From assembly GCF_036345915.1 (NCBI RefSeq), contig NZ_CP107785.1:6510001-6574000 (forward strand): DNA of 64,000 bases, read 5' to 3'. Origin of the DNA: Nocardia sp. NBC_00565. GTDB lineage: Bacteria; Actinomycetota; Actinomycetes; Mycobacteriales; Mycobacteriaceae. The position numbers were made by a program, and so were the translations under genes. Positions 23,501 to 53,500 of the stretch are shown in pieces (the stretch's first letter is position 1; each line of letters opens with the position of its first letter). The notes beneath the pieces were generated by a model, which was not told the DNA's origin, ran no database searches, and saw nothing but the letters and a program-made list of their open reading frames with translations.

Positions 23501-26500
23501 GCCACCGGCGCGCCCGAGTAGGCGTCCAGATCCACGGTGTCGAGCAGCACCACGTCGCCCTGTGACACCGGCACCTGATCGGCCGTGGTGGTCAGGACCG
23601 AAATGGGCTGCGCGGTATCGAGGATGTGCTGGATGCGCTCGGCCGGATGATCCGGATCCAGTGGTACATAGGCGCCGCCCGCGGTCACGATGGCGTACAT
23701 GCCGATGACCAGGTCCAGCGAACGCCGCACCGCCAGGCCGACCAGCGATTCCGCACCGACGCCCTGCGAAATCAGCAGCCGCGCAAGCTTGTTCACCCGC
23801 TCGTCGAATTCCCGATAGGTCAGCGTCGCGGAGCGACTCGATGAGGGGTGGTGGTCGGGCGACGGGTGGGCGAACTCGACGCCTTCGTAGGACACCGCGA
23901 CTGCATCCGGATGCGCGCGGACCGTGCGCCGATAGCCGTCCAGCAGCAATGCCGGCGCCAGCGCGTGCTCGGTGTCGTTCCAGCCGAGCACCGTCTGCTC
24001 GCGTTCGGGTGCGGCGAGCAGTTCCAGATCGCCCACCGGAGTGCGCGGCTCGGCGATGATGCCGCCGAGTAGGCGGCTGAATCGATCCGCGAAGCCCGCT
24101 ACGGTGCCGCGGTCGAACAGATCGCTGGCGTAGGTGATCAGGCCGCCGATGCCCGCGGGCGCGCCCGACTCGTCGTACTGGTCGCTGAGGATCAGGTGCA
24201 GGTCGAATTGCGAGATCCGCGTGTCGAAGTCCACGCCCGACACCGTCAGTCCGGGCATTTCGAGCGAGGTCACGGCCAGGTTCTGGAACGACAGGCCCAC
24301 CTGGAACAGCGGATGCCGTGCCGTGGAACGCACCGGGTTGAGTACCTCGACCAGCCGCTCGAACGGCACATCCGAGTGCGCGAACGCCTGGATATCGGTT
24401 TCCCGCTGGCGGGCGAGCAGCTTCGTGAAGCTCGCACCGGTATCGACCCGGCTGCGGAACACGAGTGTGTTGATGAACGTTCCGATCAGGTCGTTCAGCA
24501 CGGCCTCACCGCGCCCCGCCATGGGCGTGCCGATCGCGATGTCGTCGGTGCCCGACAAGCGGGACAGCAGGACGGCGAGCGCCGTGTGCACGACCATGAA
24601 CAGTGTCGCGCCCTCGGACTGTGCGATATCGATCAGCCCACGGTGGGTGTCGGCGTCGAGGGCCAGCTCGACGGCGCCGCCCGCGAAGGACTGCCGCGCC
24701 GGGCGCGGCCGATCGGCGGGCAGATCCAGCTGCTCCGGCAGCTCGGCCAGCGCGGTCCGCCAGTAGGCCACCTGATCCGACATCAGCGATTCCGGATCGT
24801 CCTCGCTGCCGAGCAGTTCACGCTGCCAGATGCTGTAGTCGGCGTACTGCACCGCGAGCGGAGTCCAGTTGGGCGATTCACCCATGGACCGCGCCGCGTA
24901 TGCCGTCATCAGATCGCGGACCAGCGGACCGACCGACGAGCCGTCACCGGCGATATGGTGCACGACCATCGCGATCACATACTCGGGCACCGGTGCCGCA
25001 CCCTCGATCTCGAACAGCGCGACCCGGACCGGCACCTCGTCGGTGACATCGAACGGCGCCGAAATCAGTTCGACCACCGCGGATTCGACCTGATCCGGTG
25101 CGATCGCGCGCACCTCGAGCGTCAAACGGGCCTGCGCGGGCGGCAGGATCACCTGCGCCGGTTCGCCGTCGACCGCCGGGTAGACCGTGCGCAAAACCTC
25201 GTGCCGGTCGACAAGATCCGCGATCGCGGCGTGCAGCGCGGGCACATCCAGTTCGCCGGTCAGCCGGACCGCGATCGGCACATTGTAGGCCGCCGACTCG
25301 GTGTCGAACCGGTTCAGGAACCACATGCGCTGCTGCGCCAGCGACAACGGAATGCGATCCGGGCGAGGACCGGCGACCAGTGCGCGGCGACCGCCCGCGC
25401 CCGCCTGCTGTTCGACCCGAATCGCCAGCGTCGCGACGGTGGACGCCTCGAACAACAAGCGCACCGGGACCCGGGTGTTCAGCGCCTCGCCCAGCCGCGC
25501 GGCGACCTGTGTGGCCAAGAGCGAATTACCACCGCGGACGAAGAAATCGTCATCCAAGCCGATGCGCGGTCCACCCTCGTGCGTGGCGAGGCCGAGCACC
25601 TCGGCGAAGGTGTTCGCCACGATCTGCTCGATCGGCGTGGTCGGCGCCCGGAAGACGGCCTTCTCGAAGGTCGGCTCCGGCAGGGCCTTTCGATCGAGTT
25701 TGCCGTTGGCGTTCAGCGGGAGCTCATCCAACTGGATGAACACCGGCGGCACCATGTAGGACGGCAGTTCCGCCGCCAGCGCCGACTGCAGCGCACGCTT
25801 GTCCAACTCACCCGTAGTCGGCACGACATAGGCGACCAGACGGTCACCCAGCGCCGGATCAGTGTGCGCGAGCACCGCGGCAGAGGTGATCGCGGACTGC
25901 CGCAACAACGCGGCCTCGATCTCACCCAGCTCGATGCGGAAGCCGCGGATCTTCACCTGGAAGTCGGTGCGGCCCCGGTACTCCAGCTCACCGTCGGCAT
26001 TCCAGGCCACCAGGTCACCGGTGCGGTACATGCGGACAGCGGGCTCGAACGGGTTGGCCACGAACCGATCCGCGGTCAGATCGGCCCTGCCGAAGTAACC
26101 ACGCGCCAACTGCGCACCCGCCAAGTACAACTCACCAGAGACGCCTACCGGCACCGGACGCAAACGCGAATCCAGCACGTAGACACGGCTGTTCCACTCC
26201 GGCGCACCGATGGACACCGAGGCCGTGTCCGCGTCGGTCACCTCGTGGTTGGTGATCGACACCGCCGCCTCGGTCGGACCGTAGAGGTTGAACAGCGTTG
26301 CCGTAGCAGGAGCGGAGTGCCCCGACGACGCGGCACCGCTGCGGAACCGCTGCGCGGTCGCGGCGGGCAGCGCCTCACCGATCGCCAACACCCGGCGCAA
26401 CGAGTCGGACAGGTGTCCGTCCGACTCGGTCAGCAGGGCATCCAGCATCGACGGCACCACATGCAGCGTGGTAACGCCGGTATCGCGCATCAAAGTGTTG

Positions 26501-50500: not shown

Positions 50501-53500
50501 GTATCGCCGGTGAAGGCCTCACCGGCGACCAGCAAGGCGCGCAACGACTCCAGCGCCGCACCACCGGACGCATCCACACTGCCCGCGAATACGGTCAGCA
50601 TCGACGGCACGAACGAGGTCATGGTGACCCGTTCGGCCGCGATGACTTCGGCCAGATACTGCGGATCACGGTGGCCGTCGGGGCTCGCCACCACAATCCG
50701 GCCGCCGGTGCTCAACGGGCCGAACAATTCCCACACCGACACATCGAAGGTGGCGGGCGTCTTGAACAACACGACGTCATCGGCACCGATGCCGTACTCA
50801 CCAGTGATCCAACGGATCTGGTTCACCACGGCGGCGTGCGGCACCGCCACACCCTTCGGGCGCCCCGTCGAACCCGACGTGAAGATCACGTACGCGGCGT
50901 TTTCCGGCCGCAGCGGTGCGATCCGCTCGGCGTCGGTGACAGGCTCGTCCGAGTAGCCGGACAACTCCAGCTCATCGATGGAAAGCGTGGGCAGGCCACC
51001 GCTTTCGAAGTTGTCGCGCGAGGTCGTCAGCACACAGACCGGTGCCGCCGACTCGAGCACATAGCTGACCCGCTCGGTCGGCTGATCCAGATCCAGCGGG
51101 ACGTATCCGCCGCCCGCCTCCTGCACCGCGTACGCCGCGACCACGAGGTCGACCGAACGCCGCAGACCAAGGGCGACAAGCTTTTCCGGACCGACACCGG
51201 CCTCGATCAACCGCCGCGCCAACCGATGCACACGGGCACCGAACTCGGCGTAAGTCAGCGTCGCGGAGCGACTCGATGAGGGGTGGTGGTCGGGTGACGG
51301 GTGGGCCAGAGAACTTCCGGTCGCTGGATCCACGATCGCGACCGCATCCGGTGTCACGGCGGCCTGCGCGGCGAACTCGCCCACCAAGGTGAGCGCAACC
51401 GCGGCACCCTTGCGAACGCCGGAACGGCGAGGGGTGCGGCCGGGCTGGCGACGCGGAAGCAACGCACGCTTGGTGTCGTTCCACCCGAGGACCGCGAGCG
51501 CGGTCTCCTGGTCGTCGAGCAATTGGATATCGCCGACCGGCACCGTCGGATCGGCGATGATGGCCGCCAGGATCCGATCCAGGCGGCGCGCGAAGGCCGC
51601 GACCGTGTCCTCGTCGAAAAGATCGAGGGCATAGGAGAATTCGGCCGCCATACCGGCCGCCTCGCCCTGCTCCTGGGTCTCCTGCAGGGTCAACTGGAGG
51701 TCGAATTTGGCCAGTCTGGCGTCGTAGTCGATGCCGTTGACCGAGAGTCCGGGCAGTTCGAGGTTGGCCTGCCTGGTGTTCTGGAAGGCCAGCAGCACCT
51801 GGAACAGCGGATGGCGCGCCTGCGAGCGGGCCGGGTTCAGGATCTCGACCAGGCGCTCGAACGGCAGGTCCGCGTGCGCGAACGCGTGCAGGTCGGTTTC
51901 CCTGGCCTGCGCGAGCAGATCCGCGAAACTGGCCGAGCCCTCGACATTCGTGCGCAACACCAGGGTGTTGACGAACATGCCGATCAGATCGTCCAGCGCG
52001 GCCTCACCGCGACCGGCGGCGGGGGTACCGACCGTGATGTCGCCGGTGCCGCTGGCCCGCGCCAGCAGCACGGCCAGCGCGCTGTGCATGACCATGAACA
52101 GCGACGAATTGTGCTTGCGCCCCAACTCGATCAGCGCGCGCTGGGTCTCGGCGGAGATCACGAACGCGTAGGTGCCGCCCCGGTAGGAGGCGACGGCCGG
52201 ACGCGGCCGATCCGATGGCAGCACCAATTCGTCGGGCAGATCGGCGAGTTCGGTGGTCCAGTAGCCGATCTGGCCGGAGATCAACGAGCTCGGATCGTCC
52301 TCGGAGCCGAGCACCTCGCGCTGCCACAGCGCGTAATCGGCGTACTGCACCGGCAGCGCGGACCATGCGGGCGATTCCCACGAGGTGCGGGCCGCATAGG
52401 CCACCATCACGTCGCGGGCCAGCGGGCCCATGGACCAGCCGTCGGCCGAAATATGGTGCACCACCATGCCGAGCACATATTCGGATTCACTGATCTCGAA
52501 CAGACGCGCGTGCAGCGGCACCTCATCGGTGACGTCGAATGCCATCGACGCCAGGTCGACCAGATGCTCGACCAGCGTCTCCTCGGTGACCCGGTACGGC
52601 GTCAGGTCCGGAACGATCTGTGCCGCATCGAGAATGCGCTGCACCGGACCGGTCTTGGTCTCCGGGAATACGGTGCGCAGCGATTCGTGCCGGTCGATCA
52701 CATCGATGACCGCGACCTGCAGCGCGGCGACATCGAGATCGCCGGTCAGGCGGATCGCGACCGGAATGTTGTAGGCCGCGCTGGTCGTATCGAAGCGGTT
52801 GAGGAACCAGATGCGCTGCTGCGCAAGCGACAAGGGGACCCGCTCGGGCCGCTCCCTGGCCACCAGTGCCTTGCGCGCACCGTCACCGGCATGCGATTCC
52901 ACGCGAGTCGCGAGCGCCGCCACCGTCGACGCCTCGAACAGCATGCGCACCGGGACCCGAGTGTCCAAGGCGATGCCGAGGCGGGCGGCGACCTGGGTCG
53001 CGATCAGTGAGTTGCCGCCGAGGTCGAAGAAGTCGTCGTCGACGCCGACCCGGGGGACGCCGAGCACGTCACTGAAGATCTGCGCGACGATTTCCTCGAT
53101 CGGCGTGGTGGGAGCACGGAATTCGCGCACCTCGAACACCGGGGCGGGCAGTGCCCTGCGGTCCAGCTTGCCGGAGGGGTTGAGCGGGAACGCTTCCAGA
53201 TCGACGATCGCCGAGGGCACCATGTACGCGGGCAGGGTGCGGTTGAGCGAGGTCTTGATCTCGTCGATATCGGGTGCGCCCGCCGGGGTCACCACGTAGG
53301 CGACGAGCTGGTCGCCCGCCACCGTATCCATGACGAGTACGACGGCCTGGGTGATCGCGGGGTGGTCCAGCAGCGCGGCCTCGATCTCGCCGAGCTCGAT
53401 GCGCTGGCCGCGGAACTTCACCTGGAAGTCGGTGCGACCGATGTATTCCAGCACGCCGGCGCAGTCCTGCGGCTCGGTCCAGCGCACCAGGTCACCGGTG

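What the first reader, a model, noticed from the sequence alone, without database searches (positions are those of the whole stretch)
23823..51307. Short palindromic DNA element inserted in frame in four adenylation domains, in both orientations
A 49-50 bp sequence containing GTCGC-GGA-GCGAC occurs at 23823-23871, 33540-33589 and 51258-51307 (same orientation, just before core motif A1), and as its reverse complement at 40397-40446 (between motifs A7 and A8). Each adds about 15 residues and leaves the frame open. Opposite orientations and different sites imply a mobile or recombining element that tolerates translation, like Rickettsia palindromic elements. I know of no such description in an actinobacterial NRPS.
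Basis: seen in the sequence. Interest (0 to 1): 0.85.

Follow-up and report, generated by a model that had tools for sequence, protein, structure and literature searches.

The report
Mobile hairpin DNA translated within genes
A roughly 50-letter DNA element with a small hairpin has spread through Nocardia genomes and sits in frame inside genes, most often right behind the predicted start codon, so that unrelated proteins are predicted to carry the same short added peptide.

Summary
In detail: four in-frame ~50-bp copies in one 14,670-residue NRPS, three one way and one reversed. They belong to a genome-wide family: 92 host copies at 76 loci. A codon-usage classification puts 53 of 76 at predicted gene N-termini, giving M-(N/S)-(T/A)[16 protein letters not shown] leaders on unrelated enzymes such as CarA and FolB; 12 of 76 lie inside genes that read as NRPS, PKS or acyl-ligase, 11 antisense; 11 are unclassified. 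Orthologous empty sites show precise 51- or 54-bp differences. On an A-domain tree the 20 insert-bearing rows of 68 need 13 changes, at least 9 forced, so descent of one A domain is rejected. A 5-bp hairpin is kept by double substitutions. The family is patchy: 73 of 98 sampled Nocardia, some Pseudonocardiaceae and two further families, none in the listed genomes of sister genera. IS200/RAYT transposase does not track it. Best reading: a REP-like non-autonomous mobile element, translation-tolerant like Rickettsia palindromic elements but shorter and start-codon-biased. The mobiliser is unknown; no description was found in the open-licence papers searched.

The parts
15379..59391 (-). NRPS open reading frame, 14,670 aa, 12 A domains found by the A3 anchor; host of all four copies
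23821..23871 (+). Element copy 1 (antisense to the gene); encodes [17 protein letters not shown], residues 11841-11857, just before core motif A1; hairpin 23825-23837
33538..33588 (+). Element copy 2 (antisense to the gene); encodes [17 protein letters not shown], residues 8602-8618, before A1; hairpin 33542-33554
51256..51306 (+). Element copy 3 (antisense to the gene); encodes [17 protein letters not shown], residues 2696-2712, before A1; hairpin 51260-51272
40399..40448 (-). Element copy 4 (sense to the gene); encodes [16 protein letters not shown], residues 6316-6331, between A7 and A8; hairpin 40432-40444
   Evidence: opposite a gap in the alignment to linear gramicidin synthase subunit A
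45256..45300 (-). A different hairpin element (GGCGGC-GGA-GCCGCC-GGGGTGGG at 45266-45288), in frame in the same NRPS, residues 4698-4712, by its flanks in a condensation domain

Best explanation
The four inserts are copies of a non-autonomous, REP-like mobile DNA element. Core: columns 3-51 of the alignment, about 49 bp, made of a 5-bp hairpin (mostly RTCGC-GNA-GCGAY in Nocardia) followed by a conserved G-rich strand (TC-N-N-TG-N-GGGGYGGYGGYCGGGNGACGGGYGGGC). SHOWN: it is dispersed in tens of copies; orthologous sites differ by its precise presence or absence, net 51 or 54 bp in the cases read, so frame is kept; frame F3, used at N-termini, and the antisense frames are open or nearly always open; the hairpin is held by compensatory changes; predicted start codons lie 1-4 codons upstream of 50 of 76 host loci, and a second group sits in NRPS/PKS/ligase-like genes. 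INFERRED: the hairpin plus the G-rich strand are recognised, probably as single-stranded DNA, by an unidentified enzyme acting in trans that inserts without inverted-repeat ends or a consistent target duplication. Insertions survive where 17-18 extra residues are harmless (N-termini, loops). The start-codon excess over intergenic DNA suggests a targeting bias as well as selection.
For: Host genome: 92 matches with E < 0.003; 58 pattern hits against 0 for the reversed pattern. Of 76 loci 53 N-terminal (50 in F3, 41 with the start codon exactly three codons before the GCA codon), 12 internal, 11 other. Random placement would give 0.03 of 76 at exactly that distance if the genome has ~8,800 genes, an assumed figure. 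Wider Nocardia set: 118 of 169 non-tandem copies have an in-frame start within 6 codons in F3, 105 at 2 or 3, against 43 and 30 in the other two frames; at least 7 of the 105 are internal A7-A8 copies with a chance start codon. Empty sites: carA filled in 4 of 30 printed genomes (G000, G009, G053, G057); folB filled in 2 (G000, G009) of 26 readable of 30; 54 of 238 blocks have an empty-site relative, paralogues included. A-domain tree: 13 changes, at least 9 forced. Hairpin: 96.6% of cells paired, 4 of 5 pairs with double changes, 44 such cells, slid controls 20-56% paired; with copies chosen blind to the stem 96.4% over 253 copies. The same columns vary in 22 copies of family f14, whose loci are mostly outside clear frames (14 of 20 'other'), and copies of the class read antisense keep the F3 bias, not their own frame's: DNA rather than peptide seems maintained.
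Against: No mobilising gene was found: Y1 transposase (PF01797) is missing from 15 of 19 element-bearing genomes, and the complete host copy has no element within about 2.2 kb. No consistent target-site duplication. Close neighbours are always in the same orientation (16 of 16), unlike REP doublets. Presence/absence could be loss or gene conversion rather than transposition; no transposition was observed. Gene starts are predicted by a codon score, not measured. Insert-bearing A domains are clustered. The covariation may partly reflect a few source subfamilies (A5-T17, G5-C17), though four of five pairs vary; shuffles reached the number of further pair types in 43 of 500.
Confidence: 0.82

Rival explanations
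1. The element is a functional leader or regulatory element (translation initiation, N-terminal tag, regulator site) spread and kept by positive selection at gene starts rather than a selfish repeat.
For: Extreme concentration 1-4 codons after predicted start codons; substitutions are synonymous-biased in frame F3, 335 observed against 198 expected in the N-terminal set.
Against: Carriers are functionally unrelated: of 20 N-terminal proteins scanned (of 53), 18 matched Pfam families of very different kinds. Carriage changes between close species. The F3 bias is also seen in G5-class copies outside N-termini, ratio 2.05, though their own R3 frame shows 0.90, and, weaker, in f14 copies, ratio 1.32. 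The carA leaders of G000 and G009 differ at 3 of 18 residues while the proteins are 96% identical.
Confidence: 0.15
2. NRPS copies arose once and spread only by A-domain duplication, recombination or gene conversion; mobility is not needed to explain the window.
For: Insert-bearing A domains are clustered on the tree (13 changes; 2 of 500 shuffles as low), and filled copies at the A7-A8 site share left-flank DNA not seen in empty relatives.
Against: At least 9 forced changes. The same DNA occurs in both orientations, at two A-domain sites in Nocardia plus a third before RMYRTGDL in Amycolatopsis and relatives, in PKS-like and acyl-ligase-like frames and at ~50 N-termini.
Confidence: 0.1
3. It is a REP/REPIN mobilised by RAYT or an IS200/IS605-derived PATE.
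For: Hairpin near one end, no inverted-repeat ends, no consistent target duplication, precise empty sites; the host genome has IS200-like genes.
Against: PF01797 in only 4 of 19 element-bearing and 2 of 24 element-free genomes; most host copies are within predicted genes; no inverted doublets among 16 close pairs.
Confidence: 0.2

Closest known systems
Rickettsia palindromic elements (RPEs)
   Same: Short repeats inserted in frame in many unrelated genes, tolerated in translation (passages of the review PMC10969869; the original papers are known to me from recall and that reference list, not read).
   Different: RPEs are ~150 bp; this is ~50 bp with one 13-bp hairpin, in actinobacteria, concentrated directly behind predicted start codons.
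REP sequences / REPINs with RAYT
   Same: Short, hairpin-bearing, tens of copies per genome (PMC3116915, passages).
   Different: REPs are extragenic, form inverted doublets and go with RAYT; here most host copies are within genes, tandems are direct, and Y1 transposases do not track them.
PATEs of Haloquadratum (IS605-related)
   Same: No inverted-repeat ends, near-terminal palindrome (PMC3119063, passages and section 28).
   Different: PATEs have near-terminal palindromes at both ends that resemble IS605-type transposon ends; here one hairpin near one end, and most element-bearing genomes tested lack PF01797.
MITEs in general
   Same: Non-autonomous, small, can fuse in frame (PMC10969869, passages).
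   Different: No terminal inverted repeats; target duplication not established.

Membership tests
Rickettsia palindromic elements | In-frame insertion in unrelated protein-coding genes | tested here: met
   53 of 76 host loci N-terminal, 12 internal by codon score; 18 of 20 scanned carriers match unrelated Pfam families
Rickettsia palindromic elements | Length ~150 bp | tested here: not met
   Core ~49 bp, net insert 51 or 54 bp in the cases read; RPE length
Rickettsia palindromic elements | Sequence homology to an RPE family | not tested
   No RPE sequences were fetched
REP/REPIN | Palindromic stem-loop | tested here: met
   96.6% of cells paired, 4 of 5 pairs with double changes
REP/REPIN | Mainly extragenic | tested here: not met
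   65 of 76 host loci within predicted genes; in family f14, by contrast, 14 of 20 fetched loci were neither N-terminal nor internal by the same rule
REP/REPIN | Inverted doublets | tested here: not met
   0 of 16 neighbouring host pairs inverted
REP/REPIN | RAYT (Y1 transposase) in the genome | tested here: not met
   PF01797 in 4 of 19 element-bearing genomes
PATE / IS605-derived | Near-terminal palindrome, no inverted-repeat ends | tested here: inconclusive
   One hairpin near one end only; ends not inverted repeats (read)
MITE | Terminal inverted repeats | tested here: not met
   Consensus ends CAGCATCGCG...GACGGGTGGGC are not inverted repeats (read)
MITE | Target-site duplication | tested here: inconclusive
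   No consistent duplication over 169 copies; some sites suggest 3 bp, e.g. CAG..CAG, GAG..GAG

The most novel reading that the evidence does not exclude
A mobile element whose insertion is targeted to translation start sites, delivering a frame-preserving 51- or 54-bp cassette right behind the start codon by a mechanism not seen in known bacterial transposons; two different hairpin families in the same genomes would then share one in-gene insertion strategy.
Probability: 0.35. Interest if true: 0.92.

Novelty: new variant of a known kind. Interest (0 to 1): 0.8.

Why it matters
It indicates that protein-coding mobile repeats, best known from Rickettsia, also occur in high-GC actinobacteria, in housekeeping enzymes and in peptide and polyketide megasynthases. 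It offers dozens of natural tests of how proteins tolerate insertions, explains a recurring predicted N-terminal peptide in Nocardia proteins that could mislead start-site and domain annotation, and raises a concrete open question: what moves a 50-bp element to start codons.

Tried and rejected
Loose hairpin motif with spacer Ns: not above chance, dropped. Fold of single copies: z from +0.37 to -2.39, weak; covariation was used instead. RNAalifold also drew a second helix in the right half; it shows no double changes and is not claimed. Pairing of the left arm with the downstream GCGACG was considered and rejected by eye because the right arm stays constant when the left changes. Target-site duplication: first scan distorted by tandem arrays; after removing them nothing consistent. 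Y1/RAYT as mobiliser: not correlated, no element beside the host's complete IS200-like gene. Peptide selection: looked strong, but the same columns vary in f14 copies. Rfam: no match in the window. Plasmid and phage collections: no match to a 60-mer at the limits used. My first A-domain tree labels (a peptide pattern) missed 10 insert-bearing rows: one search counted 10 rows and 8 changes; relabelled at DNA level it is 20 rows and 13 changes; one degenerate row (L198, score 18.8) is still counted as empty. Literature: asked for such an element in Nocardia or actinobacteria and listed nothing on it; two searches looked for RPE papers. Of PMC3055210 I saw only that the terms do not occur; of PMC2635572 passages, not used. 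Only open-licence PMC papers are held, so other reports may exist. In some searches some pairs are NRPS paralogues, not orthologues. In one search the 11 'other' loci include several (e.g. 144842, 424746, 8374973) that read as N-terminal by eye but failed my thresholds; they were not moved.
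Full report
WHAT WAS CHECKED. The window is 6510001-6574000 of a 9.71-Mb single-contig genome. One minus-strand ORF of 14,670 aa (59391-15379) is an NRPS. The four stated copies are real: three on the plus strand (antisense to the gene) at 23821-23871, 33538-33588, 51256-51306, and one on the minus strand (sense) at 40399-40448. Copies 1-3 add AHPSPDH(H/P)PSSSRSATL just before motif A1; copy 4 adds [16 protein letters not shown] between A7 and A8, opposite a gap in the alignment to linear gramicidin synthase subunit A (motif names are recalled).

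IT IS A GENOME-WIDE REPEAT. A pattern search gave 58 matches in the genome and none for the reversed pattern. A sequence-only model from 30 copies gave 105 matches at E<=1, of which I kept the 92 below 0.003. They form 76 loci: 65 single, 10 double, one of 7. All 16 neighbouring pairs within 200 bp are in the same orientation, 9 of them spaced 51 or 54 bp.

WHERE THE COPIES SIT. Coding frames were called by a codon-usage score trained on 21 long ORFs, not by a gene finder. Of 76 loci, 53 are N-terminal (50 in one sense frame, F3; 41 with the start codon exactly three codons before the GCA codon of the element, two codons in between), 12 internal and 11 other. The internal ones read, by their flanking residues, as NRPS, PKS or acyl-ligase; 11 of 12 are antisense and copy 4 of the window is the sense one. 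In the wider Nocardia set (own genome plus loci from a public scan) 118 of 169 non-tandem copies have an in-frame start codon within six codons in F3, 105 at two or three, against 43 and 30 in the two other frames; at least 7 of the 105 are internal A7-A8 copies preceded by a chance start codon. Of 20 N-terminal proteins scanned (of 53), 18 matched Pfam: response regulators, P450, OTCase-type, amidohydrolase, TetR, luciferase-like, MeaB, CPSase small chain, isocitrate/isopropylmalate dehydrogenase, ABC transporters, queuosine synthesis, allantoicase, FolB, thiolase and others. The matched domain begins behind the leader, for example at residue 25 for CPSase and 23 for FolB.

EMPTY SITES AND TURNOVER. 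carA: the gene was found in 59 of 59 genomes; of the 30 loci printed, G000, G009, G053 and G057 carry the leader and the other 26 do not, including G045, which like G009 is 96% identical to the host protein. N. tenerifensis carA (L049) carries a copy at a slightly different place. folB: of 30 loci printed, 4 could not be read at the right place (L294, L303, L307, L308); of the other 26, G000 and G009 are filled, the rest (e.g. G045, G047) empty. Read by eye the net gain is 18 codons in both. Over all loci, 54 of 238 element blocks have an empty-site relative and 127 a filled one, paralogues included. The sister species G009 (contig lengths equal those of N. pseudovaccinii NBRC 100343) has 62 matches, of which I fetched 60. 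Of 92 host copies, 38 have both flanks in its element loci, including tandem and NRPS-paralogue cases; for the other 54 the gene may be missing or the site empty, which was not separated.

NOT ONE A DOMAIN'S DESCENT. Of 68 A domains, 20 carry the pre-A1 insert by DNA score; the tree needs 13 changes, at least 9 forced by starred branches, none of 200 bootstrap trees has one origin, and 2 of 500 shuffles are as low, so the trait is also clustered (tree). Two examples at 96-97% identity: window W13108 and N. vinacea L082 have it, N. pseudovaccinii L071 does not; at another A domain of the same loci L071 has it while L082 and window W16342 do not.

STRUCTURE. Columns 5-9 pair with 13-17: ATCGC/GCGAT, GTCGC/GCGAC, GGCGC/GCGCC, GCCGC/GCGGC, GACGC/GCGTC and others. 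On 70 sequences 96.6% of cells pair, 4 of 5 pairs show double changes, 44 such cells; slid controls pair in 20-56%; 0 of 500 shuffles reach the covariation score, 43 of 500 reach the number of further pair types. With copies chosen blind to the stem, 223 of 253 have all five pairs. Right boundary: C at column 51 in 96% of 206 copies; left: G at column 3 in 99%, with columns 1-2 at 77 and 74%. No consistent target duplication.

WHAT IS CONSERVED. In the N-terminal set of 116 copies (which includes some internal A7-A8 copies, see above) none has a stop in F3, against 76 in F1 and 31 in F2. Substitutions are synonymous-biased in F3, but the 37 G5-class copies outside N-termini show the same bias in F3 and none in R3, the frame in which the NRPS copies are read, and 22 copies of family f14 vary at the same columns with a weaker bias. 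So the constraint looks like DNA or RNA sequence rather than peptide.

DISTRIBUTION. 73 of 98 sampled genomes of the genus match, 0 to 62 copies with a cap near 61 scored candidates. Of 394 sampled genomes of the class 42 match, in f1, f14, f33 and f31, most in f33/g102, unnamed here; that g102 is Streptomyces is my guess. Two f33 loci (L377, L381) carry a copy in frame F3 inside what looks like the same gene. Of 20 f14 loci fetched, 5 are internal, 1 N-terminal and 14 neither by the same rule; four sit in A domains before RMYRTGDL. So the start-codon bias is shown for Nocardia only.

MOBILISER. Y1 transposase PF01797 is in 4 of 19 element-bearing and 2 of 24 element-free genomes: not the obvious partner. 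No other enzyme family was tested.

MECHANISM, WITH STEPS MARKED. Shown: dispersion, precise presence/absence, frame-compatible length, hairpin conservation, start-codon bias of predicted genes. Inferred: a trans-acting enzyme, single-stranded recognition, and purging of harmful insertions by selection. The excess at start codons over intergenic DNA seems too large for tolerance alone (0.03 of 76 expected at exactly that distance with an assumed 8,800 genes), so I think targeting contributes, but the two causes are not separated.

LITERATURE. Seven searches for such an element in Nocardia or actinobacteria listed none. RPE, REPIN and PATE comparisons use passages of PMC10969869, PMC3116915 and PMC3119063 and section 28 of the last; Ogata's original RPE papers were not read.

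Noticed in passing
window 45256-45300 (minus); L384-L391: A second hairpin family, GNCGGC-GGA-GCCGNC-GGGGTGGG, with a covarying stem: 13 host matches at <=1 mismatch, present in 17 of 59 sampled Nocardia genomes, 3 reversed-pattern control matches in all 59; one in frame in the same NRPS, others inside or near the ends of reading frames.
   Followed up: partly
host genome 8979663-8980017 (L225): Array of seven direct copies spaced about 51-53 bp, with no clear reading frame through it.
   Followed up: no
window 51388-51474 (residues 2640-2668): Extra basic segment [29 protein letters not shown] before the A domain of copy 3; about 58 bp of it match N. vinacea and N. pseudovaccinii loci.
   Followed up: no
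host genome 8035241-8035606 (L309, L370): Complete-looking IS200-like transposase in the host genome with no element copy in the 5 kb fetched around it.
   Followed up: partly
L167 (1083262-1083365): An aspartate/ornithine carbamoyltransferase-family gene carries two tandem copies of the leader; carA carries one.
   Followed up: partly
host 768420 and 6787766 (L166, L202): Two copies share the reading EYSIA-RF-EG-WPGDG-ARIM with similar flanks, but my classifier found no open coding frame through them; possibly short upstream ORFs.
   Followed up: no
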